64,000 nucleotides of DNA. Origin: an uncultured Amylibacter sp. (GTDB lineage Bacteria; Pseudomonadota; Alphaproteobacteria; Rhodobacterales; Rhodobacteraceae). A program made the position numbers and the translations under genes. Where the stretch lies: positions 1,450,501 through 1,514,500 of the forward strand of contig OY365741.1 in NCBI GenBank assembly GCA_959347425.1. Direction: 5' to 3'. Position 1 is the stretch's first letter. Each line of letters opens with the position of its first letter. Positions 13,411 through 32,613 of the stretch are shown piece after piece. Below the pieces are notes generated by a model. The model had not been told where the DNA came from and did no database searches. It worked only from the letters and a program-made list of their open reading frames with translations.

Positions 13411-13413
13411 TTT

Positions 13414-14326: not shown

Positions 14327-15541
14327 CTATTTTGCCGCAATCCGCTTGGTTGGAATATCCACCAGCTTGCCCCGCGGGATCAGCCGTTCTGCATCATACA
14401 TCGGCATCGTGCAAAGCGTGCCTTGACACAGGCTACCATCCAACAGCGCAACATCCACAACCGTTTTGGGACCGTGTTTGGCATCATCCATCCGCACGAT
14501 ACAAACCCCGCACCCCTGATAGGGCGAATAGCCAGAGGTGCAAACCCGCCCAATGACCTTACCATCTTGGGTTATCGTACGCCCCAGGGCGGCGACACCA
14601 TCCGTGTTCAGACGCATGCCCCAAGTGCGAGACTCCCGCGGTGCTGCCTCCAACGCCTTGCGCCCGATAAAATCGTGGTCGCCGAATTGAACAAATCCGC
14701 CCAACCCCGCATCAAACGGCGTGGTTGTCGCGTCAAAATCCGACCCAGCGTTCAGCAATCCTGCCTCTATCCTACGCGCCCGAAAAACGGGAGTGGCAGT
14801 CAGCAGCATATCAAATTTCGCGCCGATTTGCGTAATTTTATCGCCAATCGCGCGAATATCGGTATTGGGTAGCAGATAAACCTCCCACCCCAGCTCGTTA
14901 GAAAAACCAGACCTGCTAATCCAGCATTTCTGGTTGGCAATCGTGACTTCCATGCAATCAAAATAGCGAAACGGGTCGGGCATCCCGCCGTCCAGCACTT
15001 CGGCCAAAACATCCAGAGACCGCGGCCCTTGGATTTGGCTTATCCAAACATCGGGGTCGTGGATTTTCACATCCAAACCCTCCGCCGCCGCCTTGTACCA
15101 TTTGAACAAATCCCCATCGGCCTGCGCCATCCAAAACCGATCCTCGGCCAGGCGCAATAAAACTCCGTCATTAATCATTCCACCATCGTGATAGCAGGCG
15201 AATTGATAGGCGCACCGCCCGACTTTTAATGAGGTCACATCGCGGGGGAAAACTCGGTTTAATAGGGTCGTCGCATCGGGGCCGCTGAATTCAATCGCCA
15301 GCTCGCCCGTGTTGCGGAAAATAACACCCGTGCGTACCGCCCAATACATATCGTCATCGTTCGCATGGCTGAGGTATTCGGGGGTTAGACGCGAATTATA
15401 CAGCGTGTATTCGGGATCGTAAGGCAGCTCCATATAGCTGAGCGGATGGGGTGCCATTGTCCGCGACATTTCACGCGGGCGGGCGTTTTCGTTTGGCATC
15501 GCCTTGGCGACAAAGCGGTAGTCAGATAGGTTTTGGCTCAT
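14327..15541 (-). CDS. Aminomethyltransferase (GcvT/DmdA/sarcosine-oxidase family)
   Basis: 404 residues, folate-dependent one-carbon transfer family. Typical motifs include the GVIFRNTGELAIEFSGPDA segment near residue 75, ending LLNRVFPRDV, then IQGPRS near 170, the GFSNELGWEVYL turn near 215, and a C-terminal barrel with GYSPYQG. GcvT proper is usually about 370 residues and linked to gcvH and gcvP, neither of which is present. DMSP demethylase DmdA and dimethylglycine or sarcosine demethylases share this fold. It stands alone with its own promoter (15594-15622), so the methylated substrate cannot be named. Confidence 0.72.
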   Translation of the reverse strand: MSQNLSDYRFVAKAMPNENARPREMSRTMAPHPLSYMELPYDPEYTLYNSRLTPEYLSHANDDDMYWAVRTGVIFRNTGELAIEFSGPDATTLLNRVFPRDVTSLKVGRCAYQFACYHDGGMINDGVLLRLAEDRFWMAQADGDLFKWYKAAAEGLDVKIHDPDVWISQIQGPRSLDVLAEVLDGGMPDPFRYFDCMEVTIANQKCWISRSGFSNELGWEVYLLPNTDIRAIGDKITQIGAKFDMLLTATPVFRARRIEAGLLNAGSDFDATTTPFDAGLGGFVQFGDHDFIGRKALEAAPRESRTWGMRLNTDGVAALGRTITQDGKVIGRVCTSGYSPYQGCGVCIVRMDDAKHGPKTVVDVALLDGSLCQGTLCTMPMYDAERLIPRGKLVDIPTKRIAAK

Positions 15542-15622: not shown

Positions 15623-15905
15623 TAGGGGGGTGAAAATATGTAAGGGGGTTATTGGGTGGTTTGTTTTTCGTAAAGCGCGAACAGGTGGTTTATCCGCGCG
15701 GTATCATCGGCAAAGGGTTGCCCCGCGCATGGGGCGATGGTGTTGGTGGCGGTGGAGTAAGACGGGTTCTAACCTGTCTCTCAATACCACATAGAGGCAT
15801 AATTCACCCAGCATTTTGCTCATTCCACGGGGTTTTCCGCCCGCTCTGCAAAAGGAATATGCGATATTTCTCCTTGTTTTTGGTTAAAAAAGGCTTAATA
15901 AACTA
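15623..15905. other. Non-coding remainder of the 424-bp divergent spacer
   Basis: Apart from dispersed element C at 15745-15783 nothing is recognised here. Short reading frames lack ribosome sites and resemble no known protein. It may carry decayed sequence. Confidence 0.5.
15745..15783 (+). repeat. Dispersed intergenic element, copy C
   Basis: GGTGGCGGTGGAGTAAGACG followed by GGTTCTAACCTGTCTC, a full copy. Unlike copies A, D and E it is not between convergent genes. Confidence 0.65.
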
Positions 15906-15934
15906 TTGACAAAAAATAAAAAATTGGTAATATA
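15906..15934 (+). promoter_or_regulatory. Promoter of the giant lipoprotein gene
   Basis: TTGACA (15906-15911), 17-nt A-rich spacer, AATATA (15929-15934, continuing TATAT). The consensus -35 suggests strong constitutive transcription. The ribosome site GGGAGAG is at about 15955-15961. Confidence 0.65.
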
Positions 15935-15965: not shown

Positions 15966-18900
15966 ATGAAACTCTTTTTTCAAAATAATGTTGCATATAC
16001 GCGAGGCGCACTGCTTGCCCTGTTCGCGGGGCTGTTTATCTTGGCGGCTTGTGGTGGTGTAAATGTCGCGCCCACATTCGTTATAAACAACCCACCGGCA
16101 GATAGCCTTTGCGTGACTAACCCGTATGGTCCGACCTGTACCAAACAGAAGGAAGCGGCTATTGAGCTTTGCCGTATGGCTATCGCTGGCGGGAATGATT
16201 GTGCCGATAACACGCCAGAGTCTGTGGTCAGTTGCTTGACAGACCCGTTTAGCACGGCTTGCACCACTGCGCATGCTACCGAGAACCCGTTTGAAGGAAC
16301 GGAGATAACCATTGCGAAGGAACAGGAAAAACGGCAAGACACATGTTTGCGTTCGGATACAACCGCGGTTTGTGAGACGGCAGTTTCGAGCCTTTGTTCC
16401 GCTGATCCCTTTACGCAAACGAGGGGCGATACGCCGACCAATCTTTGTGTGGATATAAGTGGCACGGCTTATGCCGATGCGCGCGCAGAGGCTTGTTTGG
16501 CGAGTCCTGATGGTACGCCTGTGGATTCTAGTTGTGCGACGAATACGCTTGCAGAGAATACGTGTGAAACTGCTCCGTTTGGTCGCACTGGGTGTGATAA
16601 TCTTGATGAAATTGATGGATATAGAACAACTTTCTGTACGGTAACGGATGTTTTTAATCCAAGCTGTGGCGATACGGATGAATATGGTGCTACGAATGCG
16701 GCGCGTGATGGTTTTTGCAGTGATACAGCAGCAGAAGGAAATAGCGATTGTGCGAGTCGCCTAACAGGGATTTGTACGATGAATGGTGGGACTTCGCCCT
16801 TCTCTAGGCTTTGTGGCACGAATGTGGCAAGCCAACGTATTTTCTGTACCACTAATAGGGCACATGTGGGTACTACTGGAAATTGCCCCGATACGATAAC
16901 AACCTTCTGTAATGATAGCGCGAATGATATATTTGACACGCTTTGTAATGATGATGCTGGAACTTATGATGTCGCGCGGGGGAGGCAATGTGTGGCTGAT
17001 GGTACTACGGGCGGTGAGTGTGGTGATGAGGATTCGGGTTATATCCAAGACTATTGTGATACGGCCGCGGGGCTTACGAATGTAACGCATTGCCCTGATA
17101 CGTATGAAAACGCGAATCCTGCGGTTGCGGAAGTGAATGTGACTGCATTAGCGGGCAAAGCCCTTAATTCCGAGGGTACGGCTCTGCTAACGGGTGCGGA
17201 TGGGACTACGGACACAGCAATTATCAGCTCTGGCGGGGCGCATGCAGACAACGATGACCCCGCGAACTTTATTGCGGGCGGTACTGCTGTGCTGGATTTG
17301 GGTACAAGTGTGACCACGACCAGAGAAAGCACCTTGACGTTAGGTATGCTTGACAATGATAGTGATGCCAACGGTGGCTTTGCCATTGCGGTTGGTGAGT
17401 TTGATAGTGATAACCACAGGTTCTATGTCGGTTTGTTATCCGTCACGGCTTTGGGTGCACCTTTGAATGATGCCGCGCAAGGTGGTATTTGGAGTGCAAA
17501 AGTACGTATATTAACGTCAATCAAAACTAACCCTCTTCTGGAAGCGGATTTCAAATTGAATGTTGATTTTGCTACGAAATCCCTTAAAATTGTTAATGCC
17601 GCGGGTGAGGATGCCAATATTAATTTTGATATTTCTGGAACGAGACTTGCCTTTTTTATAGATGGTAAATTCACCGCCAATGGCGTGATATATGGCACGG
17701 TTGATTTTACTGGTGCCGACAATAACGGTACGTTGACGGGCTTGATTGGGCAAAACGGCGCGGTTGGTATATTTAAGAGGAATAGTGATAGCTCGCCTTA
17801 TGTCGGTGGCTTTGTTGCCGCGAAAACTGATTGTACTGCCACGGGGACTCCGTTCCATGCCGATTGTACGACCACGAAGGACTACGATTTGCAGGCGCGG
17901 TTGTGTAACAACCACCGTACGACTTCAGTTGCGAATTTTAACACGAATTGTCGGGATAACGGGGAGGTTACATCCCGTGTTTGTGAGTTCAAGGGAACTC
18001 ATGCAAATCCGTTTAATAAGGACATTTGTACAGGTGCAGGTTATGACAATGAGCGGGCGCGGTTCTGTTTCCGCCGGAATACTATATTTAGGCACTTCGG
18101 GATAACCAGGCTAGCGGGCTTTAGTGTGGCCAGGGATTGCGCGGGGGACTCTGTGGTTCAAGACCAGGTTTGTAGCCCCCATGGGGCATACGCGAGGCCG
18201 TTTGATTTGCAGGTTTGCCCAGATTCAGACGGGGAGTCGGTAGCGGTGCGGGCGGGGTTATGTAGCAACAACGATGAACGTCCTGTTACGGATTTTAACA
18301 CCCGTTGTTTGAAAACTGTGATTCAAAACTTGGTTTGTGCCCCCAGTGGCAAAAATGCGAATCCGTTTGATAAGGTTATTTGTCCAGATAGTAAATCTAG
18401 CAATAAGGAGGTAAGGGCGCAGGCATGTCGCGATCGCACCCTACCAGATGGCGTTAATGTACTGGTTGATTGCGCCAGAGACTCTGCTATTACAGACGTG
18501 ATTTGTGCGACCAGTGGCACCCTTGCGAATCCGTTTGATAGTGAGATTTGTTTGGGCGACCAAGCGACCGCCCAAACGGATTTTCTTGATAATTGTAAAG
18601 GGAATACCGCGGGTGGGGCAGATTGTGCCAGATATACCGATTGTGTCGCGAATCCCTATATGGACGGGTGCGATGCTAAGTACTATGTTGCCGAACGCGA
18701 AGATTATACTGAAAGGCTTTTGACGTATTGCAGCAGCGACCGTGCTGGGGAAACCGCCCCCGTGGGTGCGCCCTCTTGCGCAACCCCCACGATTCAAGCC
18801 GTTGTTTGTGCCAGCAGTGGGACTTATGCGAATCCGCTTGATGCAGAGGTTTGCCCTGAAAGCGATGTCGCCGATATTGACATGATTCAAAATGAATTTA

Positions 18901-21900
18901 CAACAACGTGCTATCACGCGCGGGCGGATTTAACGGAAAGACCCGAATGTAATAATATCGCCACTTGTTTTATGCTGGGCAAACTTGCCAATAATACCGA
19001 GACTTCGACTGATGGCAGGTTTGCTTGTAATATTGGTGGGCTTTTTGATGTGAAGAATTTGGTAATATGCAGTAGTTATGTTTATGGTCAACCTTTGCCA
19101 CAAGACTGTAATCAAGCCACGATTGACAAGGCTTGCAATGCCAATCCGTTTTCCACCGCCCTTGATGGGATTGATTGTATTAGTGATAGAACGCGTGATA
19201 CCGCACGGAATGAGCTGTGCTTTGGTGCCGCAAGCGTTCAGTATGATTGTACAGAGACGCGGACCCGTGCGTGTGCGATGGATGCTACAAGCAAATATTG
19301 TCCAGAGGATGTCGCGAACAGTCCCTGCATGATGGATCCTTTCGGCGACACTTGTTTTGATGATGATACCTATAACTCTGTCCGTTTGATGGCGTGTGAT
19401 ACCGACCCTATCGCGGCCGAGATTTCTTCGGATACTGCATTTGCGGATAAAACCACCCTTGCCCAAAATTGTCTTGCTACGATAGATGAAGAGTGTAGTT
19501 ATGATGAGACTGAGCAATTTACAAATGACTTTTGCAAGATTGGCACGCTTTATGATGCCGAACGCGGGCGGTTGTGTTTGTATGGTTATACCCCAGCGAA
19601 TGCGGGTGATACTATCGTCATCCCTACCGAATGTGCTAGTAATACGAGTTATGAAGTCGCCTATTGCAGTGAGCTTGCGCTTGAGGGTAATATGGAGTGT
19701 GCGGGTAGAAAAGCAGATATTTGCACCACTAATAATGGCACCGCGCCCTTCGCACCGCTTTGTGGTGAAAATTTGGCGGTCCAGATGAAGTTCTGTACAG
19801 AAGGTGTGACGACTATCTTTGATACCCGTTGTGCTTCTGCTGATGGACTTACGCAGACTATCGCTGGTACAAATAATGCGCGTAGAGAGGCATGTGGTGG
19901 GAATGAAGGTGAGTCTAATCGTGCGACGGATGCCCAGTGTGCAGATACGGTATTGCATGTTTGTGGTAGTGAGAGGGGTCAGCTTGACACTCCATTTCAT
20001 TCTGCGTGCTTGCGTAAGAAAGACGGGGCTTATGTTTATCAGGTTTATGTTGTGGCACGTGGGGAGGCTTGTTTTGACCAAGCCTTCAATCCATCAATAG
20101 GTACATGTGGTGATGAGGATTCGGGTACTTATATCAAAGATTATTGTGCTACGGACGCGGGTAATACCAATGTAACGTATTGCCCTAAGAAGTATGCGGG
20201 CGCGAATCCTGTTAATACTGGTGATACCGCGAATGTGGCGACTTTAACAGCCAAAGCCCTGAATGCAGAGGGTACGGCTCTGTTGCCGACATTTATCGCG
20301 GATGGCGCGGCGAATACAGCCACCGATGACCCCGCGAACTTTATTGATGGCGGGGCGACTGCGTTGAATTTGGGCGATGCCGTGACGGCAAACGCAGATA
20401 TCCCTGCTGAGCGCAACTTGGCGTTAAGTGATGATACGACCAGTGGTTTTGCGATTGCCAGTGCGGGTTCTGGATTCAGCAAAAAATATTATGTCGGGAT
20501 TTTATCTAATACCGATTTGGGTGTGCTTTTGACCGTGCAACCAAGTGTTGATTGGACTGGAAAACTGAGTATAACAGGAACATCCATTGACGGGGACGAT
20601 GTAGGCGGTGTTTATGAGGATATTACCTTGAATGTTAATCTTGAAGATAAGGAATTGACCTTGAAGGATGGTTCGCTTGATATTTCTAATAACTTTTCTG
20701 AACTTTTGACACTTGATATAGAAGGTAAATTCACCGCCAATGGCGTGATATATGGCAGGGTTGTTATTGAAGATGCAGACGGTTATACTGATTTCAATAA
20801 CGGTACGCTTACAGGTTTGATTGGCGTGGAGGGCGCGGTTGGCATATTTAAGAGCAATCTTAGGACGGACACCACTTATGTAGGTGGGTTTGTTGTTGCA
20901 CCGTCAATTGATTGTAGTGAAGATGGGACTCCGTTTCATGTGGTTTGTACGAATAACGCGGCGGCGCGGGCGGCACTTGCACTTGCTTGTGGCGATAACG
21001 GTGCTAAACGTGGTACCCCACAGTGTAATCAGTTTATTAACGGGGTGGATGGGCTAAGAATTGCCGATTGTAACGCGAATCCATACCGTACCACCAGTGG
21101 TTGTGCTGGTGACCCTGCGTTTGTGGAGGCGCGGAGAATTCATCGTGCCTTTTGCGTTTCCACTGCGGGTAATTTTGATATCAAGTGTGATATTTTATCT
21201 GATACGGAAACAGACCATATTCGCATTATACATCTCGTACGTGGGCGGGCTTGTGTTAGAGGAGGTGACAGCTTCAATCCACCAAGGGGTGTATGTGGTA
21301 GTGAAGAGACCGCAGGTTATATCCAAGATTATTGTGGCACGGCTGAAGGTATTACCAAAACAGAGGTTTGCAAAAGGGCCTATAGTTTAGCGAACCCTAC
21401 CCTTGCACTCGTGGATGTGTCATTGCTGGGCAGCAGACTGCGCAATTCCGATGATACAGATTTGGCAACGGTTATTGCAGAGGGTATGGCGAATACCGCA
21501 AACGATGATGATGCGAACTTTATCGTGGGCGGTGCGGGCGCACTGGATACGGGTTTAACCCAAACAAATGATGACACCTTTAGGTTAAATGAGCTTGATA
21601 ATAGAGCCGATGCCAACAGTGGTTTTGCCGTGGCGATTGCTACACAAAAATACTATGTCGGTTTATTGTCTGGTACGAATCTGGGTAGGGTTTTGCCGAC
21701 CACCACTACAGAGGCATTCCTTGACTGGCCAGCACAATTGCGTATCCTACGTGGTACGACTTTTGAAACCGCACAGGATTTCACATTGCGGATTGAACTT
21801 AATGCCAAGACGATTAGCGTGAAAGCTGGTTCTATAACGGCTGGTGTATTTGCTATAAATAATGGTGGATTCACCATCGCTGGCTTGTTATATGGCACGG

Positions 21901-24900
21901 TTACTGTTGGCAATGCTGATGCGGGTACGCTTACAGGTTTGATTGGCACAAAAGGCGCGGTTGGCATATTTAAGAGCAATGTTGCATCGGCGAGCGATTA
22001 TGTCGGTGGGTTTGCTGCCTACATGAATGCTGATTGTACTGAAAATGGGACTCCGTTCTATGTGCTTTGTGCGGATAACGCGGTGGAGCAGCAGAAACTT
22101 GCATTTGATTGTTTCCCTAACGCTACTAAATATGGTGACCCGCAGTGTAATCAGTTTATTAACGGGGTGGATGGGCTAACCATTGCCGATTGTGCCAAGA
22201 GGCCATTCCGTACCACCGATGGCTGTAATACGAACCCTGCGTTTGCGTCCGCGCGGGGAGCTATAGTTTCCTATTGCATCGCCGACCTTTATACTACTTT
22301 TGCTGCCCTGTGTGATATTTTCAGTTTCCCTGATACACACCCGGACCATGTTGCCAATACAAATATCGCGCGTGGGAAGGCTTGTGCGATAGGCTACCAA
22401 CCACACCAGTTTCAATCGAATACTAATCGTATATGTGGTAGTGAAACGACCGCAGGTAGTTATCTTGAAGCCTATTGTCGCACGGAAACGGGTCAGGCAG
22501 ATGATGGGATTTGCAAAATCTCCTATAGTATAGCGAACCCTACCCGTGCATTCGTGGATGTGTCATGGCTGGGCAGCAGACTGCTCAAATCCGCCACTAC
22601 TACGGCAACGGTTATTGCAGAGGGTGCGGGGGATACCACAAACGATGATGACGCGAACTTTATCGTGGGCGGTGCGGATGCACTGGTAACGGGTCTAACC
22701 CAAACAGCGGTAGAGGATTTAGTAACCGCACCAGATGATACCACCTTTAGGTTAAATGATCTTGATAATAGAGCCGATGCCAACAGTGGTTTTGCCGTTG
22801 CGATTGCCACACAAAAATACTATGTCGGTTTATTGTCTGGCACGACTCTGGGTAGGGTTTTGCGGAACGAAGATGTAGAGACCTTCCTTGACTGGCCAGC
22901 AAAATTGCGTATCCTACGTGGTACGACTTTTGAAACCGCACTGGATTTCACATTGCGGATTGAACTTAAAGACAAGACGATTAGCGTGAAATCTGGCACT
23001 CTAGATGCGTCTGTATTTTCTATAAATGATGGGAAATACGGCACCTATGGCTTGTTATATGGCACGGTTACTGTTGCTGGTACTAATGCGGGTACGCTTA
23101 CAGGTTTGATTGGTGTGAAAGGCGCGGTTGGCATATTTAAGAGCAATCCTGCATCGGCGAGCGATTATGTCGGCGGGTTTGTTGCCGTACCTGATGAAGT
23201 TAATTGTACTACCGATGGGACTCCGTTTGATGTGGGTTGTACGAATAACGCGGCGGCGCGGGAGGCACTTGCAATTGCTTGTCGCCATGGACCCGGAGGC
23301 TTTAAACGTAGTAGAGATGACCCACAGTGTAATCAATTTATTAACGGGGTGGATGGGCTAACCATTGCTGAGTGTGCTTACAGACCATTCCGTACCACCG
23401 ATAACTGTAATACGAACCCTGCGTTTGTGCCTGAGCGGAGAAGTATAGTATGGCTTTGCACCCACCCTATGTATGCTTTTTCATACCAGTGTGATCCTTT
23501 CCCTGATACACAAGCGGGTCATCAGACCACTATAAATGCCGCGCGTGGGGGGCTTTGTATTGCAGCAGGTGACGGCTTCATTCCACCAAGGGGTTTAGTA
23601 TGTGGTAGTGAAACGACCGCCGATAGTCTTATCAAAGATTATTGTGAGAGCACGGCGGGGCTTACCAATTTAGCGGGGTGTCCTAAAAATTATGTCACGG
23701 CGAATGGCGATGCTGGGGAAGTGTCTGTGCCTGCTATTGGAACGGGTGAAAACCAGTTGCTCAATTCCGATGGTTCGGGTGCGCTGACGGTTATCCCTGC
23801 GGTACCTCCGCAGGGTACGGGCTTTTTCGCCACGAACTTTATTGGAATCGCTGCTGGTAGCATCACACCCCTAACTTTGAATTCTACCCACAAAGGTCTT
23901 CGCTTGGCGGATGAGGAAGATGGTTTTGCCTTTGGCATTAGTGGTACCAAAAAGCTCTATATCGGGTTGTTGGCTGGCACGAGTCTGGGCGCACCTTTGC
24001 GTAATGCTACCGCACAGACCGCCACTTGGGATGCAGATTTGAGTGTCCTATTTTATAATGGCTCGGCAGATGCAATAGAAAATAAAACTTTCAAATTGCA
24101 GGTTAATTTTGGTGGCGACACAGACAACACCCTTGCTATAATGGGGGATGCCCCAAGCATTACTGGTCCTGGTGTGTTTTCCTTGGATGGTAAATTCACC
24201 AGAAATGGCGTGATATATGGCACGGTGGGTTTTACCAATGCCAGTTATGGCGCGGGTACGCTTACAGGTTTGATTGGTGTGGATGGCGTGGTCGGTATAT
24301 TTAAGAGCGATGATCCCAATCTCGCTTTTGCCGCTAGCCGATATGTCGGCGGGTTTGTTGCCGCGCCAACACCTCCCGATGTGACTGCGATTGATTTCAA
24401 AGCCAACGCGCGGCAGAATAATGGTATGGACACGTTGACTGTTTTGGGCTCTGGCGTGCCTGATACTAATATTGGCTCCGTTAACTTTATTGAGGGCAAG
24501 GTCGGGGAGTCTTCGTTGGGGATTGAGAATGTTGATGAAACTTCTCTGCTTCTATCTGGAAACAAAGGCGGCGTTGCATTTACATTTGGCAATGCATCTG
24601 GTGTAGCAAATTACCATGTCGGAATTTTGGCTGACACGAATGTGGGTCCTGCTTTGAATAACGATGTGACGGGTGATTGGGTTGGTAAAATACAGGCAAT
24701 AGTTAATGGTTCTGACACCACCGAACAGGCTATAACGTTCAATGTTAATTATGGTGCGAAATCTTTTGCTATAAAAGATGGTACTGCGCCTACCTTTGCG
24801 AATATTGGCGCGATGACTATGGATGGTCGTTTCACCGATACTGGTGTGATATATGGCTCGGTTTATTTTGGCGGGGCAAATACAAATACAGGTATGCTTA

Positions 24901-25004
24901 CGGGTTTGATTGGGCAGAATGCTCTGGTTGGCGCGTTTGCGGGTAATGGTGGTCTTGCCAACCCATACGTAGGTGGGTTTATTGCCAATAAGCCCACACA
25001 ATAA
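15966..25004 (+). CDS. Giant cysteine-rich surface lipoprotein with six TbpB-like beta-domains
   Basis: 3012 residues. It begins with a type II signal peptide: hydrophobic stretch to residue 26, lipobox LAAC with lipidated Cys29, then Gly at +2 (no inner-membrane retention signal). Two kinds of module alternate. First, cysteine modules built around C-x2-NPF-x3-C and an Arg-x3-Cys helix, dense at about residues 40-385 and 620-1420. Second, domains of about 200-230 residues starting near 388, 1423, 1816, 2196, 2585 and 2808, each ending with NGVIYGTV, GLIGxxGAVGIF and YVGGFVA. That ending recalls the C-terminal barrel of TbpB/fHbp-type lipoproteins. Function unknown. Surface exposure, adhesion or ligand capture is inference. 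No Slam-like exporter is in the window. Confidence 0.75.
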   Translation: MKLFFQNNVAYTRGALLALFAGLFILAACGGVNVAPTFVINNPPADSLCVTNPYGPTCTKQKEAAIELCRMAIAGGNDCADNTPESVVSCLTDPFSTACTTAHATENPFEGTEITIAKEQEKRQDTCLRSDTTAVCETAVSSLCSADPFTQTRGDTPTNLCVDISGTAYADARAEACLASPDGTPVDSSCATNTLAENTCETAPFGRTGCDNLDEIDGYRTTFCTVTDVFNPSCGDTDEYGATNAARDGFCSDTAAEGNSDCASRLTGICTMNGGTSPFSRLCGTNVASQRIFCTTNRAHVGTTGNCPDTITTFCNDSANDIFDTLCNDDAGTYDVARGRQCVADGTTGGECGDEDSGYIQDYCDTAAGLTNVTHCPDTYENANPAVAEVNVTALAGKALNSEGTALLTGADGTTDTAIISSGGAHADNDDPANFIAGGTAVLDLGTSVTTTRESTLTLGMLDNDSDANGGFAIAVGEFDSDNHRFYVGLLSVTALGAPLNDAAQGGIWSAKVRILTSIKTNPLLEADFKLNVDFATKSLKIVNAAGEDANINFDISGTRLAFFIDGKFTANGVIYGTVDFTGADNNGTLTGLIGQNGAVGIFKRNSDSSPYVGGFVAAKTDCTATGTPFHADCTTTKDYDLQARLCNNHRTTSVANFNTNCRDNGEVTSRVCEFKGTHANPFNKDICTGAGYDNERARFCFRRNTIFRHFGITRLAGFSVARDCAGDSVVQDQVCSPHGAYARPFDLQVCPDSDGESVAVRAGLCSNNDERPVTDFNTRCLKTVIQNLVCAPSGKNANPFDKVICPDSKSSNKEVRAQACRDRTLPDGVNVLVDCARDSAITDVICATSGTLANPFDSEICLGDQATAQTDFLDNCKGNTAGGADCARYTDCVANPYMDGCDAKYYVAEREDYTERLLTYCSSDRAGETAPVGAPSCATPTIQAVVCASSGTYANPLDAEVCPESDVADIDMIQNEFTTTCYHARADLTERPECNNIATCFMLGKLANNTETSTDGRFACNIGGLFDVKNLVICSSYVYGQPLPQDCNQATIDKACNANPFSTALDGIDCISDRTRDTARNELCFGAASVQYDCTETRTRACAMDATSKYCPEDVANSPCMMDPFGDTCFDDDTYNSVRLMACDTDPIAAEISSDTAFADKTTLAQNCLATIDEECSYDETEQFTNDFCKIGTLYDAERGRLCLYGYTPANAGDTIVIPTECASNTSYEVAYCSELALEGNMECAGRKADICTTNNGTAPFAPLCGENLAVQMKFCTEGVTTIFDTRCASADGLTQTIAGTNNARREACGGNEGESNRATDAQCADTVLHVCGSERGQLDTPFHSACLRKKDGAYVYQVYVVARGEACFDQAFNPSIGTCGDEDSGTYIKDYCATDAGNTNVTYCPKKYAGANPVNTGDTANVATLTAKALNAEGTALLPTFIADGAANTATDDPANFIDGGATALNLGDAVTANADIPAERNLALSDDTTSGFAIASAGSGFSKKYYVGILSNTDLGVLLTVQPSVDWTGKLSITGTSIDGDDVGGVYEDITLNVNLEDKELTLKDGSLDISNNFSELLTLDIEGKFTANGVIYGRVVIEDADGYTDFNNGTLTGLIGVEGAVGIFKSNLRTDTTYVGGFVVAPSIDCSEDGTPFHVVCTNNAAARAALALACGDNGAKRGTPQCNQFINGVDGLRIADCNANPYRTTSGCAGDPAFVEARRIHRAFCVSTAGNFDIKCDILSDTETDHIRIIHLVRGRACVRGGDSFNPPRGVCGSEETAGYIQDYCGTAEGITKTEVCKRAYSLANPTLALVDVSLLGSRLRNSDDTDLATVIAEGMANTANDDDANFIVGGAGALDTGLTQTNDDTFRLNELDNRADANSGFAVAIATQKYYVGLLSGTNLGRVLPTTTTEAFLDWPAQLRILRGTTFETAQDFTLRIELNAKTISVKAGSITAGVFAINNGGFTIAGLLYGTVTVGNADAGTLTGLIGTKGAVGIFKSNVASASDYVGGFAAYMNADCTENGTPFYVLCADNAVEQQKLAFDCFPNATKYGDPQCNQFINGVDGLTIADCAKRPFRTTDGCNTNPAFASARGAIVSYCIADLYTTFAALCDIFSFPDTHPDHVANTNIARGKACAIGYQPHQFQSNTNRICGSETTAGSYLEAYCRTETGQADDGICKISYSIANPTRAFVDVSWLGSRLLKSATTTATVIAEGAGDTTNDDDANFIVGGADALVTGLTQTAVEDLVTAPDDTTFRLNDLDNRADANSGFAVAIATQKYYVGLLSGTTLGRVLRNEDVETFLDWPAKLRILRGTTFETALDFTLRIELKDKTISVKSGTLDASVFSINDGKYGTYGLLYGTVTVAGTNAGTLTGLIGVKGAVGIFKSNPASASDYVGGFVAVPDEVNCTTDGTPFDVGCTNNAAAREALAIACRHGPGGFKRSRDDPQCNQFINGVDGLTIAECAYRPFRTTDNCNTNPAFVPERRSIVWLCTHPMYAFSYQCDPFPDTQAGHQTTINAARGGLCIAAGDGFIPPRGLVCGSETTADSLIKDYCESTAGLTNLAGCPKNYVTANGDAGEVSVPAIGTGENQLLNSDGSGALTVIPAVPPQGTGFFATNFIGIAAGSITPLTLNSTHKGLRLADEEDGFAFGISGTKKLYIGLLAGTSLGAPLRNATAQTATWDADLSVLFYNGSADAIENKTFKLQVNFGGDTDNTLAIMGDAPSITGPGVFSLDGKFTRNGVIYGTVGFTNASYGAGTLTGLIGVDGVVGIFKSDDPNLAFAASRYVGGFVAAPTPPDVTAIDFKANARQNNGMDTLTVLGSGVPDTNIGSVNFIEGKVGESSLGIENVDETSLLLSGNKGGVAFTFGNASGVANYHVGILADTNVGPALNNDVTGDWVGKIQAIVNGSDTTEQAITFNVNYGAKSFAIKDGTAPTFANIGAMTMDGRFTDTGVIYGSVYFGGANTNTGMLTGLIGQNALVGAFAGNGGLANPYVGGFIANKPTQ

Positions 25005-25015
25005 CATCGGGGCGG

Positions 25016-25042
25016 GTTTTTATTTGGGGATGATGGCGGTGG
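25016..25042 (+). repeat. Left half of the dispersed element at a gene-fusion junction
   Basis: GTTTTTATTTGGGGATGATG followed by GCGGTGG closely matches the left end of copy B (14171-14198). It lies 11 nt after the stop of the giant gene, and the following bases enter coding sequence of the next giant gene just after where its lipobox should be. Confidence 0.6.
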
Positions 25043-25220
25043 GGCAGCTGTCGCGCCCACAGTTGTTGAATCACCCACAACGACAGACTCTTGCACGACT
25101 GATCCGTTTGGCGATGGATGCGACACGGCCGAGGATGAGATTGCGCAGGATATAAAAATCACCGAATGCCTTGCTGGTGAAGCGGCCGCCACGCCAACCT
25201 GCGAGTCTGCGGTTAAGTCC

Positions 25221-27926
25221 GTGCCATGTCTGAATAATCCGTTTGATACCGCATGCGCGAATAACGCGGAGTTTGCTAAATATTTGACACCTGCCAGAAC
25301 AGCGCGGATGACCCTTTGCACCGGTAATCCGTTTAACGGACTTTGCACGGCGGACCCAGTGGCACGGCTGGCGTTTTGCCGTGATACAGGCAGGACAACC
25401 ACTACGAAATCTGCCGATTGCACGGGTACGATAAACACGGCTTGCACTGCCGATAGGTTTGCCCAAACGACTGGAACAACGGTTGGCAATCTTTGCTCTG
25501 CTGACCCTATTGCTGATTTGGTATTTTGCCGTGATGCGAGCCTAACCCCCGCAGGGAAAGAGGCTAATTGCACTGGTACGATAAAGACGGCTTGCGTTGC
25601 TGATCCGTTTGATACGCTTTGTACGGCGGGTTATGCAACTGAGCGTGCGACTGCGTGTCGTACTAGTTCCAATGGGGCTAATGATTGTGCTCAGACGGTG
25701 ATTGACGTTTGTACGGCCTCACCTGCAACCAATGTCGGTCCGTTTGATACGCTTTGTACGGCGGGTTATGCAACTGAGCGTGCGACGGCGTGTCGTACTA
25801 GTTCCAATGGGGCTAATGATTGTGCTCAAACGGTGATTGCGGTTTGTACCGCTTCACCTGCAACCAATGTCGGTCCGTTTGATACGCTTTGTACGGCGGG
25901 TTATGCGACTGAGCGTGCGGATGCGTGTCGTAGTAATACCGCTGGGTCTAATGATTGTACTGCGACAGTGGTTGCGGTTTGTACGGCTTCGCCTGCAAGC
26001 AATGTCGGTCCGTTTGATACGCTTTGTACGGCGGGTTATGCGACTGAGCGTGCGACGGCGTGTCGTACTAGTTCCAATGGGGCTAATGATTGTGCTCAGA
26101 CGGTGATTGCGGTTTGTACGGCCTCACCTGCGAGCAATGTTGGTCCGTTTGATACGCTTTGTACGGCGGGTTATGCGACTGAGCGTGCGACTGCGTGTCG
26201 TGATAAGACCAATGGGGCTAATGATTGTGCTCAGACGGTGATTGCGGTTTGTACGGCGAGTGCTGCGAGCAATGTTGGTCCGTTTGACACTCTTTGTACT
26301 GCGGGTTATGCAACTGAGCGTGCGGATGCGTGTCGTAGTAATACCGCTGGGTCTAATGATTGTACTGCGACAGTGGTTGCGGTTTGTACGGCTTCGGCTG
26401 CAAGCAATGTCGGTCCGTTTGATACGCTTTGTACGGCGGGTTATGCGACTGAGCGTGCGACGGCGTGTCGTGATAATCTAGCTGGCTCTAATGATTGTAC
26501 TGCGACAGTGGTTGCGGTTTGTACGGCTTCGGCTGCGAGCAATGTTGGTCCGTTTGATACGCTTTGTACGGCGGGTTATGCGACTGAGCGTGCGACTGCG
26601 TGTCGTGATAAGACCAATGGGGCTAATGATTGTGCTCAGACCGTGATTGACACTTGTGGTCAGCAAGGGTCTATTACTAAAGGGGCGGCTTTGTTCACGG
26701 ATGGTCTTTGTACTGCTGGTACGGCTTATCATGGCTCACGCGAGACGGCATGCTCTGCAGATCGTGTAGGGTATGCTAATAAGAATCAGTGTGCAGGTAC
26801 GGTAGCGCGGGTTTGTACTGGTAACGGTATCTTTGGTGCTGTGTGCTTGCGGGCTGACGTTACTGCGGATTATGCAACGCAACGTGCGGATGCGTGTCGT
26901 AATAATACCAATGGGGCTAATGATTGTACTCAGACGGTGATTGACGTTTGTACGGCGAGTGCTGAGAGCGCGGCTGGTCCGTTTGATACGCTTTGTACTG
27001 CGACGTATCTGCCTGCGCGTTTGGCACATTGTGCCGATCATACTATCGCCAATAAAAACTCTGCTTGCGCCGATCAAGTTGATGGTAGTGGTATTGTTCA
27101 GACCTATTGTAATCGTCGTAGTGCTGCGGATGATATTTACGGGATTTGTGATAGTACGAATGGCAATGGATTTACCGCGTGGCGTGGCAATGATGATAGC
27201 AGTCCTGTTATCGGGGCTGGTTCGGCGACTGGGGATGATCCGTCTGCGAACTTTATCGCGGGCGGTGCGAATGCGTTGTATTTGGGCAGTGGCATAACGG
27301 CTACAAACACGATGACTTTGACCTTGACGGGCGATACGGCCGATGGTATTGCCATAGCTTCTGCTGATTTTGACGGGGAGTTGCAATCTTACGCGGGTTT
27401 GCTGTCTGGGTCTGATTTGGGCGGTCCGATAGCCAGTGGCACGACTGGCACGGTAAACTGGACGGGTGGTAAAATTGCCATCGGCTGGCATGATGGGACT
27501 GGTATCACGACTCTTTCTAATACTGACTTTACCCTTGAAGTTAATTTTACCGATGGGGAGCTTACGGCGAGCGATGTGGCTGTTGGGGCTAGCACGCTTG
27601 ATATAGAAGGGACATTTGACGTGGGGTCAACTGCGGTTAGCGGGACGACAACATTAACGAAGGATTCGATTGGGATTACCGCAACTATTCGTGGTGTTAT
27701 TGGCACAGAGGGTGTTTTGGCGGTGTTTGCCACGAATGATACGGTTACCTCTGGTTTTTATGCGGGTGGGTTTGTTGCCGCCTCTCTGATGGCGCGGTTG
27801 GCATACCAGCGGCGGATTGTGCTGTCAATCCGTTTACGGCACTCGATTGTACCTCTGGTGAAAAAGATACGTATTGTAGTATTTCTGGCAATGTCTTTCA
27901 ATCGAATTGCGATGACCCAGACGTGA
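25221..27926 (+). pseudogene. Second giant cysteine-rich gene, 5' part: lacks start and signal peptide, frameshifted at the end
   Basis: Homologous coding begins at about 25041, before the first possible start (GTG 25221), with AAVAPTVVESPTTTDSCTTD. This mirrors the first giant protein just after its lipid-anchored Cys (VNVAPTFVINNPP). So the signal peptide and lipobox are missing. Domains: cysteine modules, a 45-residue tandem array (25605-26684), more cysteine modules, one TbpB-like domain (27150-27785). After FVAA near 27780 the last 48 residues lose the family pattern, while the continuation (ADCAVNPFTALDC) is in another frame from about 27782. The two frames together would make one protein of about 2050 residues. 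As read, it is a decayed or mis-sequenced gene. Confidence 0.65.
25605..26684 (+). repeat. Eight 135-bp tandem coding repeats
   Basis: Units start at 25605, 25740, 25875, 26010, 26145, 26280, 26415 and 26550, exactly 135 bp apart. Each encodes 45 residues with four Cys, in the form PFDTLCTAGYATERATAC, then NDC and VIAVC. Cys spacing is 11, 9, 7 and 14 residues. Unit 8 diverges at its end (VIDTCGQQG). Variant patches (TSSNGAND, DKTNGAND, SNTAGSND) are shuffled among units, a mark of unequal crossing-over or gene conversion. Confidence 0.95.
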
Positions 27927-30900
27927 CCGTGGAAGAGGAACAGCGGTTGCGGGTTGCGGATGGGTGTTCTTTAGAGGGTGTCACGACGACCACCCATCCT
28001 GAATGTGGGCAGGCTATTGGTGCCACTGGGGCAACTGTTTTGGCTTGCGTTGCCAATCCGTTTCTTCCGGATTGTAGCGAACTTGGAACGGGGGACAGAA
28101 CCCGTGATGCGCGGGCAGAGTTTGCCAAGGCGCGGATGGCGTATTGTGGCGATCAAGCGAATGCGTGGCAGATAAATTGTAATGGTTATACCGAATCTGC
28201 TATGCCTCGGGCGGCGATCTGTGTTGCCAATGGTGCGATTGTTACGAACGGCGGGACTGATGTGCTTGCGGGTTCATCTTTGTTTGATGTAGCTTGTATG
28301 GGTTTGGATGGTGTTTTGGTAGAGCAGACGCGCATTTGTTTGATTCCGTCGAGTAGTTTTACAACTGGATGTATGGATGGCACGCATGGCGCGGAGGGTG
28401 ATCTTAATACCGCGCGTACAACCGCTTGTTTGCTTGCGCCAACAACGGCTGATGGCGGCGAGGCTGGTCGTTGTACTGGTTTAGTTGCGAGCTATTGTGG
28501 CGATGCAACTGGTACAAATCCGTTTAATGCAGGGTGTGTTGCTAGTGAATATGATGACGAACGGACGGTCGCTTGCTTGGCTGATAGAACCGATAGCGCC
28601 AGCACCGACCGTTGCCCTAGTTTGGTTGCGACTTATTGTACTGCGAACCCGTTTGATTCTGATAGCGATTGTTCAACTGGTACGACTTATGACCCGCAAC
28701 GTACAACCGCTTGTTTGCTTGCGCCGGCAACGGCTGATAATGGCTCGCCTGGTCGTTGTACGGATTTGGTTATGAACTATTGTGGCGATTCATCTGGTAC
28801 AAATCCGTTTAATGCGGGGTGTGTTGCTAGTGAATATGATGACGAACGGACGGTCGCTTGCTTGGCTGATAGAACTGATAGCGCCAGCCCCGACCGTTGC
28901 CCTGGTTTGGTTGTAACGTATTGTGAAGCGAACCCGCTTGACCTTGCCCCTGATTGCATGGTTGCGGATTATGATGATGAACGTGAGACGGAATGTAGCA
29001 AGACAGGTATGTCCACTATGGGTGATTGTACGGCCACCGTTACGAGCCTTTGCACTGCGAACCCGTTTGAAAAAACGACTGAAACAATTGGCGACCTTTG
29101 CACTGGAACATACCTTGACCACGATACTAGGTTAGAGTTTTGTCGTGATACAGACAAACTAACCGATACGAAAGACTCCGATTGCACAGGTACGATAACA
29201 ACGGCTTGTGGTGATAACCCGTTTATCCAAACGACTGGAACAACAGAAGGCAATCTTTGCGATGGTAGTTATGATATGGCGCGTGAAACCGAATGCAGCA
29301 AAACAGGCACATCCGATTTGGGCAGTTGTACGGCCACCGTTACGAGCCTTTGCGATGCGAACCCGTTTGAACAAACGACTGGTGACACTGACATGCCCGC
29401 CGACCTTTGCACTGGCGCATACCTTACCCACGATACTAGGTTAGCGTTTTGCCGTGATACAGAAAAAAACCCTATTAATAAAGTGAACGATTGCGATGGT
29501 ACGATAAAGACGGCTTGTTCGGATAATCCGTTTGATACGCTTTGTGTTGATACATACCTAGTGGATGCCGCCGGTAGGTTGGCATTTTGTCGGGCAGACA
29601 GGAAGAAGAACGTTATCAATCACGTTGCCGCGACCTTTAGCCAGCCGATGGGATGCGACCCGATTCGCATTGAAACTTGCCGAAACAACCCCAATGATCC
29701 TGTCTGCAATGATAATAATGCGGGTAGGGTAACGCATGCCGACTGGTTGCGTGGTTTTGATGCTCCGCTTGCCAAATACGCCGCCATAACCAATCCCTCA
29801 CAGCACCAATTTTTGGACCTCAGTGATACCGATGTGGCATCTATTTCTGGTATTTCTGGTGCAATCCACCTGAACCTTAACAACGCGCGGTATGATGACC
29901 ATCCAATCGGTAAGGATGGCAGCGATGGCTTCGCGTTTTGGCGGAATTCTTCAGGCACTAATTTCGTTGGGATTACGAAGGGCACAGATTTGGGTAGACC
30001 CTTTGCAGAAAAGCCAACAAGAACTGAGGTGAGGTGGCGCGGCCAAATTCGCGCGATAGGTAAGGAGTTTCATGGGACGGTTAGCGCGGATTTAATCGTA
30101 GATATTGTTTTTTACGCTGGGTTAACTGGTGGCAATGTTGGCTACATAAATGCATTCCACATGCCCAATAAGCTGTCCGTGGGGTTCGGTGGCTATTTCA
30201 TCAACGGCACATTTAATCGTGCGGGATTTTTGCGCGGCACGGCTAGGTTAAGCGGAGTTTCTGTTCCTAGTGCTCTTCCTTTTCCTGAAACCACGGGGCT
30301 GCTGAGAGGGCTTATCGGGGAAGAGGGTATAGTCGGCGCGTTTCTTGGTTCTAAGCCAGCTGTTTCAGGCGTTCATCGCGGAAGTAACTTTGTTGGCGGG
30401 TTTGTTGCGCATCCTGATGTCAAGTCCGCGCGCACAGAGGCAACTCATGCCGTTTGGGTGGCATCATCTTCAACAGGTACGTTGTATTACACCCCGCCCA
30501 ACCGCGAAAACAGGGGCAGTCAATTTTTGAAAGGCGCGGCGGGGCGTAACCCCCTTTTTGCAACAGGAAATAACCCTGTAAGGCACACTAACCCTCAAAG
30601 CGTATCTTTTGGCTACATTACTGCGAACGCTCTTTTTGCTGCTGGTACCCGCCACCGCGGCCAACCTCTAACCCTTAATAGCAGTGGTCTTGGGAGTGTT
30701 TATTATAGGAGCGGTTATACGCTTTGGTATACAGACGGCACCAACACTGATACAACCAGATATTATTATGCTGGGCTTAGCCACGATGCCAATGTCGGGC
30801 TGACTATTCACCCCAGCAGGACTGGCACGGCAGTGTGGAACGGAGCGTTTAGAGCCCGTCGTAATGGCCTGAATAATGAAGCTGTTCAGGATAGAGAGTT

Positions 30901-31213
30901 TGCTACCTATCAAAGTCTGGCTTTAACTATTAACTTTGGTGAAAGAAAAGTGTCGGGTAGTGTTAGTAATGGTGATACCCAACATGGCGACTCCGATTTT
31001 GTCCGTGGCGATGGGGACTTTGACATAAGCGGCGTATGGGATGCTGTGGGGGTGCTTTCAGGCTCGGTTAATCAGCGTTTCGACTATCAGACCGAGAATA
31101 TTAGCGATGGAAAACTGACTGGGCTTATCGGCGAGAGCGGTGCGATTGGCGCGTTTATCAGCAATAAAACGGGCCCGGCTGGCTTTGCTGGTGGGTTTTT
31201 TGTTAAACCATAA
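27923..31213 (+). CDS. Second giant cysteine-rich gene, 3' part, in shifted frame
   Basis: 1096 residues from a GTG at 27923. The same frame reads back to about 27782 with family-like sequence, so this is more likely the continuation of the preceding frame than a separate gene. There is no signal peptide and no convincing ribosome site. Cysteine modules with DANPFEQTTG-, NPFNAGCV- and AYLTHDTRLAFC-type units fill residues 1-600. Two TbpB-like domains follow (29750-30410 and 30420-31213), with GLIGEEGIVGAF / FVGGFVA and GLIGESGAIGAF / FAGGFFV endings. Several 40-50-residue units repeat (for example EYDDERTVACLADRTDSAS twice), suggesting internal duplication. Confidence 0.6.
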   Translation: MTVEEEQRLRVADGCSLEGVTTTTHPECGQAIGATGATVLACVANPFLPDCSELGTGDRTRDARAEFAKARMAYCGDQANAWQINCNGYTESAMPRAAICVANGAIVTNGGTDVLAGSSLFDVACMGLDGVLVEQTRICLIPSSSFTTGCMDGTHGAEGDLNTARTTACLLAPTTADGGEAGRCTGLVASYCGDATGTNPFNAGCVASEYDDERTVACLADRTDSASTDRCPSLVATYCTANPFDSDSDCSTGTTYDPQRTTACLLAPATADNGSPGRCTDLVMNYCGDSSGTNPFNAGCVASEYDDERTVACLADRTDSASPDRCPGLVVTYCEANPLDLAPDCMVADYDDERETECSKTGMSTMGDCTATVTSLCTANPFEKTTETIGDLCTGTYLDHDTRLEFCRDTDKLTDTKDSDCTGTITTACGDNPFIQTTGTTEGNLCDGSYDMARETECSKTGTSDLGSCTATVTSLCDANPFEQTTGDTDMPADLCTGAYLTHDTRLAFCRDTEKNPINKVNDCDGTIKTACSDNPFDTLCVDTYLVDAAGRLAFCRADRKKNVINHVAATFSQPMGCDPIRIETCRNNPNDPVCNDNNAGRVTHADWLRGFDAPLAKYAAITNPSQHQFLDLSDTDVASISGISGAIHLNLNNARYDDHPIGKDGSDGFAFWRNSSGTNFVGITKGTDLGRPFAEKPTRTEVRWRGQIRAIGKEFHGTVSADLIVDIVFYAGLTGGNVGYINAFHMPNKLSVGFGGYFINGTFNRAGFLRGTARLSGVSVPSALPFPETTGLLRGLIGEEGIVGAFLGSKPAVSGVHRGSNFVGGFVAHPDVKSARTEATHAVWVASSSTGTLYYTPPNRENRGSQFLKGAAGRNPLFATGNNPVRHTNPQSVSFGYITANALFAAGTRHRGQPLTLNSSGLGSVYYRSGYTLWYTDGTNTDTTRYYYAGLSHDANVGLTIHPSRTGTAVWNGAFRARRNGLNNEAVQDREFATYQSLALTINFGERKVSGSVSNGDTQHGDSDFVRGDGDFDISGVWDAVGVLSGSVNQRFDYQTENISDGKLTGLIGESGAIGAFISNKTGPAGFAGGFFVKP

Positions 31214-31287: not shown

Positions 31288-31326
31288 AATGGCGGTGGAG
31301 TAAGACGGATTCTAACCTGTCTCTTA
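31288..31326 (+). repeat. Dispersed intergenic element, copy D
   Basis: AATGGCGGTGGAGTAAGACG followed by GATTCTAACCTGTCTCTTATA, between the convergent giant gene and glycerate kinase gene. The AGACGGATT/AACCTGTCT part can fold as a weak hairpin. Confidence 0.65.
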
Positions 31327-31338
31327 TAAACGCTTGCC

Positions 31339-32613
31339 CTAATCCTTTGTGATTAAAAAGCCGCGGAAATCATTCACATTTGTCAGGGTTGCCCCAGTGA
31401 TAATCTGCCCGCCGATTGCCGCGAAAAACCGATGGCTATCGTTGGTTTGTAAGGCGGTATCGGGGCAAATCCCCGCCGATTTTGCCCGCGCCAGAGTGTC
31501 GGCATCGCCGAACGCCCCCGCGACCTCGGCCGCGCCATCCACCCCGTCTGTATCGCATGCCAGCACGGATATTCCTGCACGTCCGTTTAACGCCAGAACC
31601 GCCGATAAAACGAATTCCGCGTTTGGACCGCCAATCCCCGTGCCTGTGCGGATAACACTGCACTCGCCCCCCGATAGCATCACGATGGGTGCGTCGCCCG
31701 CCCGCATTTTGTCTTGTATTTGCTGTGCCATCTTTGCCTGTTTTGCGCCCAAATCCCGGGCTATACCTTGCAAATCATCGCCGATTATTCGCGGTTCTGC
31801 CCCCGCAAGTTGGGCTGTTTTGGCGGCGGCATTCAGGCTGGTTTGGGCGGTTGCGACAATATAATGTTCGCATTTTGCCAGCCGAGCATCGCTAGATTTA
31901 ATCACGCCACTATTTTGCGCAATCGCCATACGAACATGGGCGGGCGTGGCAATCTGCCATTTATCCAAAACCGCCAAGGCATCGTGGGGCAAGGAATCCT
32001 CACCGATTGTCGCGCCAGAGGCTATGTCGCGGGGATTATCCCCCGCCACATCCGAAATCAGCAAGCTAACCACCCGCGCAGGATAACACGCCGCCGCCAG
32101 TTGCCCGCCTTTAACCCGCGATATATGCTTGCGCACAAGATTTATCTCTGCAATGGTCGCGCCAGATTTTATCAGGGCGGTGTTCAAATTGATTTTATCT
32201 TGCAAAGTAATCCCCGCAATCGGCGCACATAATAAAGCCGAGCCGCCCCCAGATATCAGGGCAATCACCATATCATCGGGCGACAAATCCGCCACGCAGT
32301 CTAGTAATTTATCGGTTGCGGACAACCCGTTTTCATCGGGAATAGGATGGGCGGCGGTCAGGATATTTATCTTTGGATGCGGGCAGGGGCAGTCATGCCC
32401 ATAGCGGGTTATGATAACACCTCGGGCAATGGCCCCTGTGGGATAGTGGTTGGCAACGCACCGCGCCATCGCCGCACTCGCCTTGCCCGCGCCGATAATA
32501 ATCAGCCGTCCGCGTGGCGGGTTGGGCAGATACTGTGGCAAGATTTTATCAGGGTCGGCAGTGGCAACGGCCGTATAAAACAGGTCGGTTAGGAATTGTT
32601 TTGGGTTTTGCAT
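31339..32613 (-). CDS. gckA: Glycerate 2-kinase, GckA/MOFRL family
   Basis: Phosphorylates glycerate to 2-phosphoglycerate in the cytoplasm. 424 residues, with the DUF4147 N-terminal domain (IIIGAGKASAAMA near residue 38, LISGGGSALL near 118) and the C-terminal MOFRL domain (GGPNAEFVLSAVLAL, then ACDTDGVDGAA). It is the last gene of the operon starting at 38701. It would use the glycerate released by the GH63 enzyme encoded two genes upstream, which strongly supports the assignment. Family members also act in serine or tartrate pathways. Confidence 0.9.
   Translation of the reverse strand: MQNPKQFLTDLFYTAVATADPDKILPQYLPNPPRGRLIIIGAGKASAAMARCVANHYPTGAIARGVIITRYGHDCPCPHPKINILTAAHPIPDENGLSATDKLLDCVADLSPDDMVIALISGGGSALLCAPIAGITLQDKINLNTALIKSGATIAEINLVRKHISRVKGGQLAAACYPARVVSLLISDVAGDNPRDIASGATIGEDSLPHDALAVLDKWQIATPAHVRMAIAQNSGVIKSSDARLAKCEHYIVATAQTSLNAAAKTAQLAGAEPRIIGDDLQGIARDLGAKQAKMAQQIQDKMRAGDAPIVMLSGGECSVIRTGTGIGGPNAEFVLSAVLALNGRAGISVLACDTDGVDGAAEVAGAFGDADTLARAKSAGICPDTALQTNDSHRFFAAIGGQIITGATLTNVNDFRGFLITKD

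What the first reader, a model, noticed from the sequence alone, without database searches (positions are those of the whole stretch)
15966..31213. A 15-kb cluster of giant cysteine-rich lipoproteins with nine TbpB-like domains
Seen directly: a lipobox (Cys29), long alternation of NPF/Cys modules with domains ending GLIG..GAVGIF..YVGGF (six in the first frame, one in the second, two in the third), no transmembrane anchor. From family knowledge the domain ending resembles TbpB/fHbp-type surface-lipoprotein barrels, but thousands of residues of disulfide-type stalk joined to repeated barrels is not a described architecture I know. Inference: a surface fibre for adhesion, ligand capture or cell-cell contact, with disulfide-rich spacers.
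Basis: partly seen in the sequence, partly recalled or inferred. Interest (0 to 1): 0.85.

Follow-up and report, generated by a model that had tools for sequence, protein, structure and literature searches.

The report
Giant beaded lipoprotein with cysteine-rich stalk
A bacterial gene encodes a 3,000-residue lipoprotein that strings six copies of the barrel domain known from iron- and complement-binding surface proteins along a cysteine-rich stalk; one relative comes from a sponge symbiont, and the arrangement is much larger than any we found described.

Summary
ORF1 (15966-25004, 3,012 aa) has a lipobox (Cys29), no other membrane segment, and six ~210-residue domains between Cys-rich arrays; ORF2 holds one more domain and ORF3 two. 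The nine domains contain no cysteine (0 of 1,959 residues); the rest has 227 in 3,050. A confident AlphaFold2 model of domain 1 (pLDDT 90.7) matches hemophilin, HpuA, TbpB, fHbp and NHBA, although sequence searches miss it. So the TbpB-like reading holds at fold level.

Correction: these are not three lipoproteins. ORF2 and ORF3 are halves of one gene, unbroken in relative P0019, but here without a signal peptide and split by a frame break shared with the nearest relative.

All 125 ORF1 cysteines are kept in two relatives at 97% and 89% identity, which argues for disulfides. Relatives have up to 18 barrels; cargo of the Slam (type 11) exporter described in the papers seen has one to three. One named homologue is from a sponge symbiont. 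Slam export, surface display and ligand are inferred: no Slam gene was found among the 35 window ORFs scanned, and no genome is held. Best reading: a multivalent surface fibre for ligand or host contact.

The parts
15906..15933 (+). sigma-70-like promoter (TTGACA, 16 nt, TAATAT), 32 nt between it and the ORF1 start
   Evidence: 10 of 12 matches; the number of such sites in the region (24) is no more than in shuffles (mean 21.9), so only its place supports it
15966..25004 (+). ORF1, intact giant lipoprotein, 3,012 aa, about 315 kDa, pI 4.4, 125 Cys
   Evidence: full-length homologues P0004 (3,102 aa) and P0005 (3,021 aa)
15966..16052 (+). signal peptide and lipobox LAAC, Cys29 (16050-16052) followed by Gly-Gly
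16053..17156 (+). Cys-rich stalk segment 1
17157..17822 (+). handle-plus-barrel domain 1 (the one modelled)
17823..20228 (+). Cys-rich stalk segment 2 (longest, about 800 aa)
20229..20900 (+). barrel domain 2
21417..22022 (+). barrel domain 3
22542..23189 (+). barrel domain 4
23742..24365 (+). barrel domain 5
24372..24989 (+). barrel domain 6, C-terminal, in tandem with domain 5 without Cys spacer; ends 4 residues before the C-terminus
25005..25220 (+). frame of ORF2 open from the ORF1 stop, Cys/NPF-type coding but no start codon; the relative has a lipobox-like MTAC start here (P0023)
25221..27926 (+). ORF2 (N-terminal part of the second, headless gene); Cys-rich modules and one barrel
25604..26649 (+). 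tandem array of 45-residue four-Cys modules, 135-nt period, 7.7 copies
27150..27782 (+). barrel domain 7
27783..27926 (+). out-of-frame tail of ORF2; the frame break between ORF2 and ORF3 lies about its start; the tail is identical in relative P0023
27923..31213 (+). ORF3 (C-terminal part of the second gene), frame open upstream of its GTG back to 27740; Cys-rich modules and two tandem barrels
29714..30412 (+). barrel domain 8
30497..31207 (+). barrel domain 9, C-terminal
15748..15781 (+). 34-bp repeat, left copy, flanking the pair of genes
31291..31324 (+). 34-bp repeat, right copy (33 of 34 identical), direct orientation

Best explanation
ORF1 encodes a giant outer-membrane-anchored lipoprotein built like beads on a string: repeated handle-plus-barrel domains of the TbpB/hemophilin/fHbp fold, spaced by disulfide-bonded Cys-rich modules. 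It is most likely exported to the cell surface through a Slam (type 11) translocon that recognises the C-terminal barrel, and there presents many divergent copies of a binding domain at once, so that it works as a multivalent adhesin or ligand trap toward the host or its secretions. Shown: sequence anatomy, cysteine conservation, fold of domain 1 (prediction). Inferred: disulfide bonding, export route, surface display, multivalent binding. The neighbouring ORF2/ORF3 gene is a paralogue of the same build that has lost its signal peptide and reading frame, and is probably not displayed.
Against: No Slam gene among the 35 window ORFs scanned and none could be sought in the genome. Pfam TbpB_B_D and NCBIfam slam_lipo stay below their cut-offs (13.2 of 26 bits, 12.8 of 80). 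Slam moves unfolded TbpB (PMC9090332, passages); a disulfide-rich 3,000-residue chain would have to stay reduced in the periplasm, which I have not seen shown. The invariant columns of 28 domains are Gly, Trp, Ile and Phe; a Tyr (residue 90 of domain 1) is at least 90% conserved in a 21-domain set but points to no known ligand, so none can be named. The C-terminal-barrel class signal fades at the strictest redundancy cut (3 of 10 at 40%). The stalk model is meaningless (pLDDT 41.9). Only domain 1 was modelled; the C-terminal barrel was not. The PF04575 search rang in 0 of its 14 control genomes, so its sensitivity was not shown by a positive control.
Confidence: 0.55

Rival explanations
1. The barrels are haem or metalloprotein binders of the hemophilin/TbpB kind, and the protein is a multi-site nutrient scavenger feeding a TonB-dependent receptor.
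For: The closest solved folds are haem-binding hemophilins and transferrin-binding TbpB.
Against: No His, Tyr or Met among the invariant or nearly invariant columns of 28 domains, though a Tyr is nearly invariant in a 21-domain subset. No TonB-dependent receptor, haem oxygenase or iron gene was named among the 35 window ORFs scanned; neighbours are sugar and tricarboxylate transport and sugar metabolism. A shared fold shows no function: fHbp shares it and binds complement factor H.
Confidence: 0.2
2. The lipoprotein stays on the periplasmic side of the outer membrane and works as a structural spacer or cross-linker.
For: No exporter among the window ORFs scanned; disulfide chemistry is at home in the periplasm (general knowledge).
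Against: The nearest folds in the PDB are surface or secreted proteins; block-wise divergence between close relatives (variance to mean 8.2 in 50-residue windows against P0005) is more like a surface protein.
Confidence: 0.12
3. ORF2 and ORF3 are a silent store of modules for recombination into ORF1.
For: Headless, out of frame, yet ORF3 is 94.9% identical to P0018 over 1,096 residues without a stop and with 46 of 46 aligned cysteines kept.
Against: In the 36 P0005 windows printed (starts 1111-1171 and 1651-2611, chosen because they include the diverged blocks), the best match to ORF2/ORF3-type sequence is 48%; the diverged ones match other units of the same protein or P0006 better.
Confidence: 0.06
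4. ORF2 and ORF3 are still made as one protein, by frameshifting or restart at the overlapping GTGA, and are exported by an unrecognised signal.
For: ORF3 stays open and conserved in two lineages that share the break; its GTG overlaps the ORF2 stop.
Against: No signal peptide on either piece; no classical slippery heptamer noticed at the break (by eye, not tested by a tool).
Confidence: 0.15
5. The stop and frame break are sequencing or assembly errors and the second gene is intact.
For: Metagenome-derived sequence cannot be excluded as the source; P0019 shows an unbroken form.
Against: The same out-of-frame tail occurs in P0023, which aligns to ORF2 at only 459 of 708 positions overall but 248 of 272 in barrel and tail, so it is not the same assembly.
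Confidence: 0.12

Closest known systems
Hemophilins (HphA/Hpl, e.g. 7re4, 8glo, 6om5), type 11 secretion cargo
   Different: One domain per protein, secreted haem binder; here six domains, lipidated, no haem ligand identified, 14% identity
TbpB / LbpB
   Same: Lipidated, repeated handle-barrel lobes, barrel at the C-terminus (PMC12282271, passages)
   Different: Two lobes, solved chains of about 500-600 residues; most relatives here have 2 to 18 barrels, about 1,000-5,000 aa and Cys-rich spacers; below the Pfam cut-off
Psychrobacter and Sphingomonas surface proteins with multiple TbpBBD domains (PMC12282271)
   Same: Proteins, many of them lipidated, with several handle-barrel pairs predicted as T11SS cargo
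   Different: Two to three copies and Pro-Thr or Pro-Thr-Asp repeats at the N-terminus; no Cys-rich arrays between barrels are mentioned in the passages seen
fHbp, NHBA, HpuA, PmSLP
   Same: Same barrel fold, surface lipoproteins
   Different: Single barrel, no stalk of this kind; ligands known for several (recalled)

Membership tests
Slam-dependent surface lipoproteins (T11SS cargo) | N-terminal signal peptide with lipobox | tested here: met
   ORF1: LAAC, Cys29. ORF2 and ORF3 have no signal peptide
Slam-dependent surface lipoproteins (T11SS cargo) | handle-plus-eight-stranded-barrel fold | tested here: met
   Model of domain 1 and its PDB matches; the other eight domains by sequence alignment only
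Slam-dependent surface lipoproteins (T11SS cargo) | barrel at the C-terminus | tested here: met
   By sequence: domain 6 ends 4 residues before the end; 21 of 29 proteins within 18 residues. Domain 6 itself was not modelled
Slam-dependent surface lipoproteins (T11SS cargo) | cognate Slam/DUF560 gene nearby or in the genome | tested here: inconclusive
   None among 35 window ORFs scanned; genome not held; PF04575 over cut-off in 47 of 149 genomes of one alphaproteobacterial order
Slam-dependent surface lipoproteins (T11SS cargo) | Slam-dependent surface display | not testable with these tools
   Needs an expression assay
Pfam PF01298 TbpB_B_D | score over the gathering cut-off (26 bits) | tested here: not met
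   Best 13.2 bits in ORF3; among 28 single domains one weak match, E 0.019
NCBIfam NF041636 slam_lipo | score over cut-off (80 bits) | tested here: not met
   Best 12.8 bits in ORF3; one of 28 domains at E 0.021
Hemophilin (haem binding) | conserved haem ligand | tested here: inconclusive
   No His, Tyr or Met among the 13 invariant and 5 nearly invariant columns of 28 domains; a Tyr is nearly invariant in 21 of them; ligand sites were not mapped

The most novel reading that the evidence does not exclude
A new class of bacterial surface fibre: one Slam-type translocon threads chains of 3,000-5,000 residues carrying up to 18 divergent TbpB-fold beads and, in the stalked ones, over a hundred cysteines, which oxidise after export into a rigid disulfide-spaced rod, used by sponge-associated bacteria to recognise host or other cells; units are exchanged by recombination to vary the display.
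Probability: 0.3. Interest if true: 0.82.

Novelty: new variant of a known kind. Interest (0 to 1): 0.6.

Why it matters
Slam/T11SS cargo described in the papers seen has one, two or at most three barrels (PMC5449769 and PMC12282271, passages). These proteins carry up to 18, most of them on cysteine-rich spacers, in a family that Pfam and NCBIfam do not recognise. If Slam exports them, the size range and the unfolded-substrate rule of that translocon need a new look, and it can be asked where the disulfides form. One named carrier is a sponge symbiont, so the family is a concrete candidate for a host-contact factor in an animal symbiosis. The claim is testable with single domains in E. coli.

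Tried and rejected
Sequence-only proof of TbpB kinship: Pfam, NCBIfam and a profile search of the PDB gave nothing significant; the one precomputed Pfam label among the homologues (PF23497 in P0009) rests on 12 residues with no stretch passing on its own and is not used. Module fold: the prediction for four tandem modules failed (pLDDT 41.9) and its profile has no PDB match up to E 1; the helix pattern in that model is not used. Distribution in genomes: no relative in genome contigs with a domain alignment, 0 of 8 genomes, 0 of 136 and 0 of 385, 0 of 136 and 0 of 390 with P0003; these sets overlap, and the tool warns that without a genome known to match these blanks show nothing. Viral contigs: none; the flanking repeat is not there either. 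Each protein search scored only the 7,990-7,993 best candidates, so '37 homologues' is a lower bound.

Taxon: the neighbour at 14327-15541 is up to 77% identical to genes of Ruegeria and other Rhodobacteraceae, SAR116 and a few MAGs with other labels; the neighbour at 31339-32613 is at best 60% identical in 149 genomes of the order of G003 (a Ruegeria locus) and 53% in 136 of the order of G002 (a SAR116 locus). I rank the window as alphaproteobacterial, perhaps Rhodobacterales, not more.

Silent-reservoir idea for ORF2/ORF3: tested by windows, not supported. C-terminal barrels as a separate class: 9 of 15 nearest neighbours are C-terminal against 0.22 by shuffling (11 of 2,000 shuffles reach it), but 6 of 12 at a 45% redundancy cut (57 of 1,000) and 3 of 10 at 40% (372 of 1,000), so only suggestive. 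Domains after a Cys array versus tandem domains keep apart at all four cuts (at most 44 of 1,000 shuffles reach the observed value).

Known-in-print check: in the rows listed (capped lists, titles and abstract starts) I saw no paper on these proteins. The genome paper on Ca. Halichondribacter (Knobloch 2020) is cited in PMC8994243; I saw nothing of it.
Full report
Anatomy. ORF1 (15966-25004) is a single 3,012-residue frame with a typical lipoprotein signal peptide (ALFAGLFILAAC, Cys29) and no other hydrophobic stretch. A family profile finds six ~200-225-residue domains in it, one in ORF2 and two in ORF3. In between lie Cys-rich stretches with recurrent NPF motifs. A module profile seeded on the 45-residue tandem array of ORF2 (135-nt period, 7.7 copies) settles on a 43-position unit whose four cysteine columns are cysteine in every copy aligned there (169, 176, 172 and 163 of 176 copies, the rest gaps; the alignment was made by that profile, so this is partly by construction). 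Cysteine is wholly absent from the nine domains (0 of 1,959 residues) and makes up 227 of 3,050 residues elsewhere; over the 29 family proteins with barrels it is 26 of 31,216 against 2,369 of 32,849.

Is it one cluster of three genes? No. ORF1 ends right after its last barrel, as 21 of 29 family proteins do within 18 residues, so its end looks natural. The frame behind its stop is open without a start codon until 25221. In the closest relative with three pieces, P0005, P0023 and P0018 are all listed with a 2,370,456-base contig as their longest; there the counterpart of ORF2 starts MTACGGAAVAP, a lipobox remnant. ORF2 ends in 47 out-of-frame residues, and the module frame, open from 27740, goes on as ORF3; P0023 has the same tail and P0018 starts at the same place as ORF3. 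P0019 carries both halves in one protein, 48% identical to ORF2 over 728 aligned columns and 48% to ORF3 over 942. The second gene is thus a headless, frame-broken paralogue, and the break is old enough to be shared. ORF3 is nevertheless 94.9% identical to P0018 over 1,096 residues with 46 of 46 aligned cysteines kept; in ORF2 against P0023 37 cysteines are kept, 5 changed and 22 face gaps. Whether ORF3 is still translated is open.

Constraint and variation. Against P0004 and P0005 ORF1 is 96.7% and 89.4% identical, and 125 of 125 cysteines are kept in each. If cysteines changed like other stalk residues in P0005 (13.2% different), keeping all 125 would have a probability near 2e-8 (my arithmetic, no call). 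Differences are clumped (variance to mean 3.1 and 8.2 in 50-residue windows). In P0005 some windows resemble another unit of the same protein (for example 74% against 56% to the ORF1 counterpart) or P0006 (80% against 62%) more than their ORF1 counterpart. That points to recombination among units. In the 36 windows printed the best match to ORF2/ORF3-type sequence is 48%, which speaks against a silent-store role.

Spread. Three protein searches gave 37 homologues, P0004-P0040 (lower bounds). Barrel counts run from 1 to 18 per protein, 18 in the 5,046-residue P0011. Not all are stalked: P0028 has 6 barrels and only 3 cysteines, P0011 49 cysteines in 5,046 residues. Seven homologues carry a source name: one Candidatus Halichondribacter symbioticus, one Gammaproteobacteria bacterium, five Proteobacteria bacterium. 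NCBI places Halichondribacter in Rhodobacterales and two papers name it the dominant symbiont of the sponge Halichondria panicea (PMC12625764, PMC8994243, passages). The habitat of this window is not told; its neighbours are mainly sugar transport and metabolism, a TctA-type transporter and a TauE-type gene, with an alphaproteobacterial look.

Mechanism. Published cargo of Slam (T11SS) is marked by an eight-stranded barrel, generally C-terminal, with a variable N-terminal part; one or two barrels in 2017 (PMC5449769, passages), two to three in Psychrobacter and Sphingomonas proteins in 2025 (PMC12282271, abstract, passages and section 18). TbpB is moved unfolded, with Skp as holdase, and a C-terminal motif is thought to be read by Slam (PMC9090332, passages). 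ORF1 meets the anatomical part: lipobox, many handle-barrels, one at the very end. Slam-family genes occur in such bacteria (20 of 190 in the class, 47 of 149 in one order, over cut-off; the 14 control genomes gave none), and haemophilin-like cargo is reported in Rhodobacteraceae/Roseobacteraceae (PMC12282271, section 18). I therefore take Slam export and surface display as the most likely route, without direct evidence. What the beads bind is unknown: the invariant positions look structural. Many divergent copies on a long spaced chain suit multivalent contact better than a single-ligand receptor; this is inference.

Verdict. It is a new variant of a known kind, with one intact gene here instead of three.

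Noticed in passing
window 15748-15781 and 31291-31324: A 34-bp direct repeat (33 of 34 identical, no other copy in the window with up to 3 mismatches, none in 100 shuffles) brackets the whole gene pair; it may mark an inserted segment or allow its deletion.
   Followed up: partly
window 50057-63471: A lower-GC defence island: Gabija-like GajB and GajA (50057-51790, 51787-53787), a type IIG restriction enzyme-methyltransferase (54070-57243), a DrmD/DISARM-like helicase (57368-60262) and a type III-like methyltransferase (60301-63471).
   Followed up: partly
window 12556-14079: An HNH endonuclease gene and a small P-loop kinase/zeta-toxin-like gene lie near the giant gene, separated from it by the aminomethyltransferase-like gene.
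   Followed up: no
window 14327-15541: Aminomethyltransferase-fold gene next to the giant gene, up to 77% identical to genes in Ruegeria, SAR116 and others; looks like DMSP demethylase DmdA, a name that is recalled and not given by a call.
   Followed up: no
window about 20913-24371 (ORF1 residues about 1650-2800): Barrel-plus-stalk units repeat at about 1.1-1.2 kb spacing and seem to exchange sequence with each other between strains.
   Followed up: partly
P0028, P0011, P0025: Some relatives are strings of 6-18 barrels with few cysteines (3 in P0028, 49 in 5,046 residues of P0011), so the stalk is not obligatory in the family.
   Followed up: no
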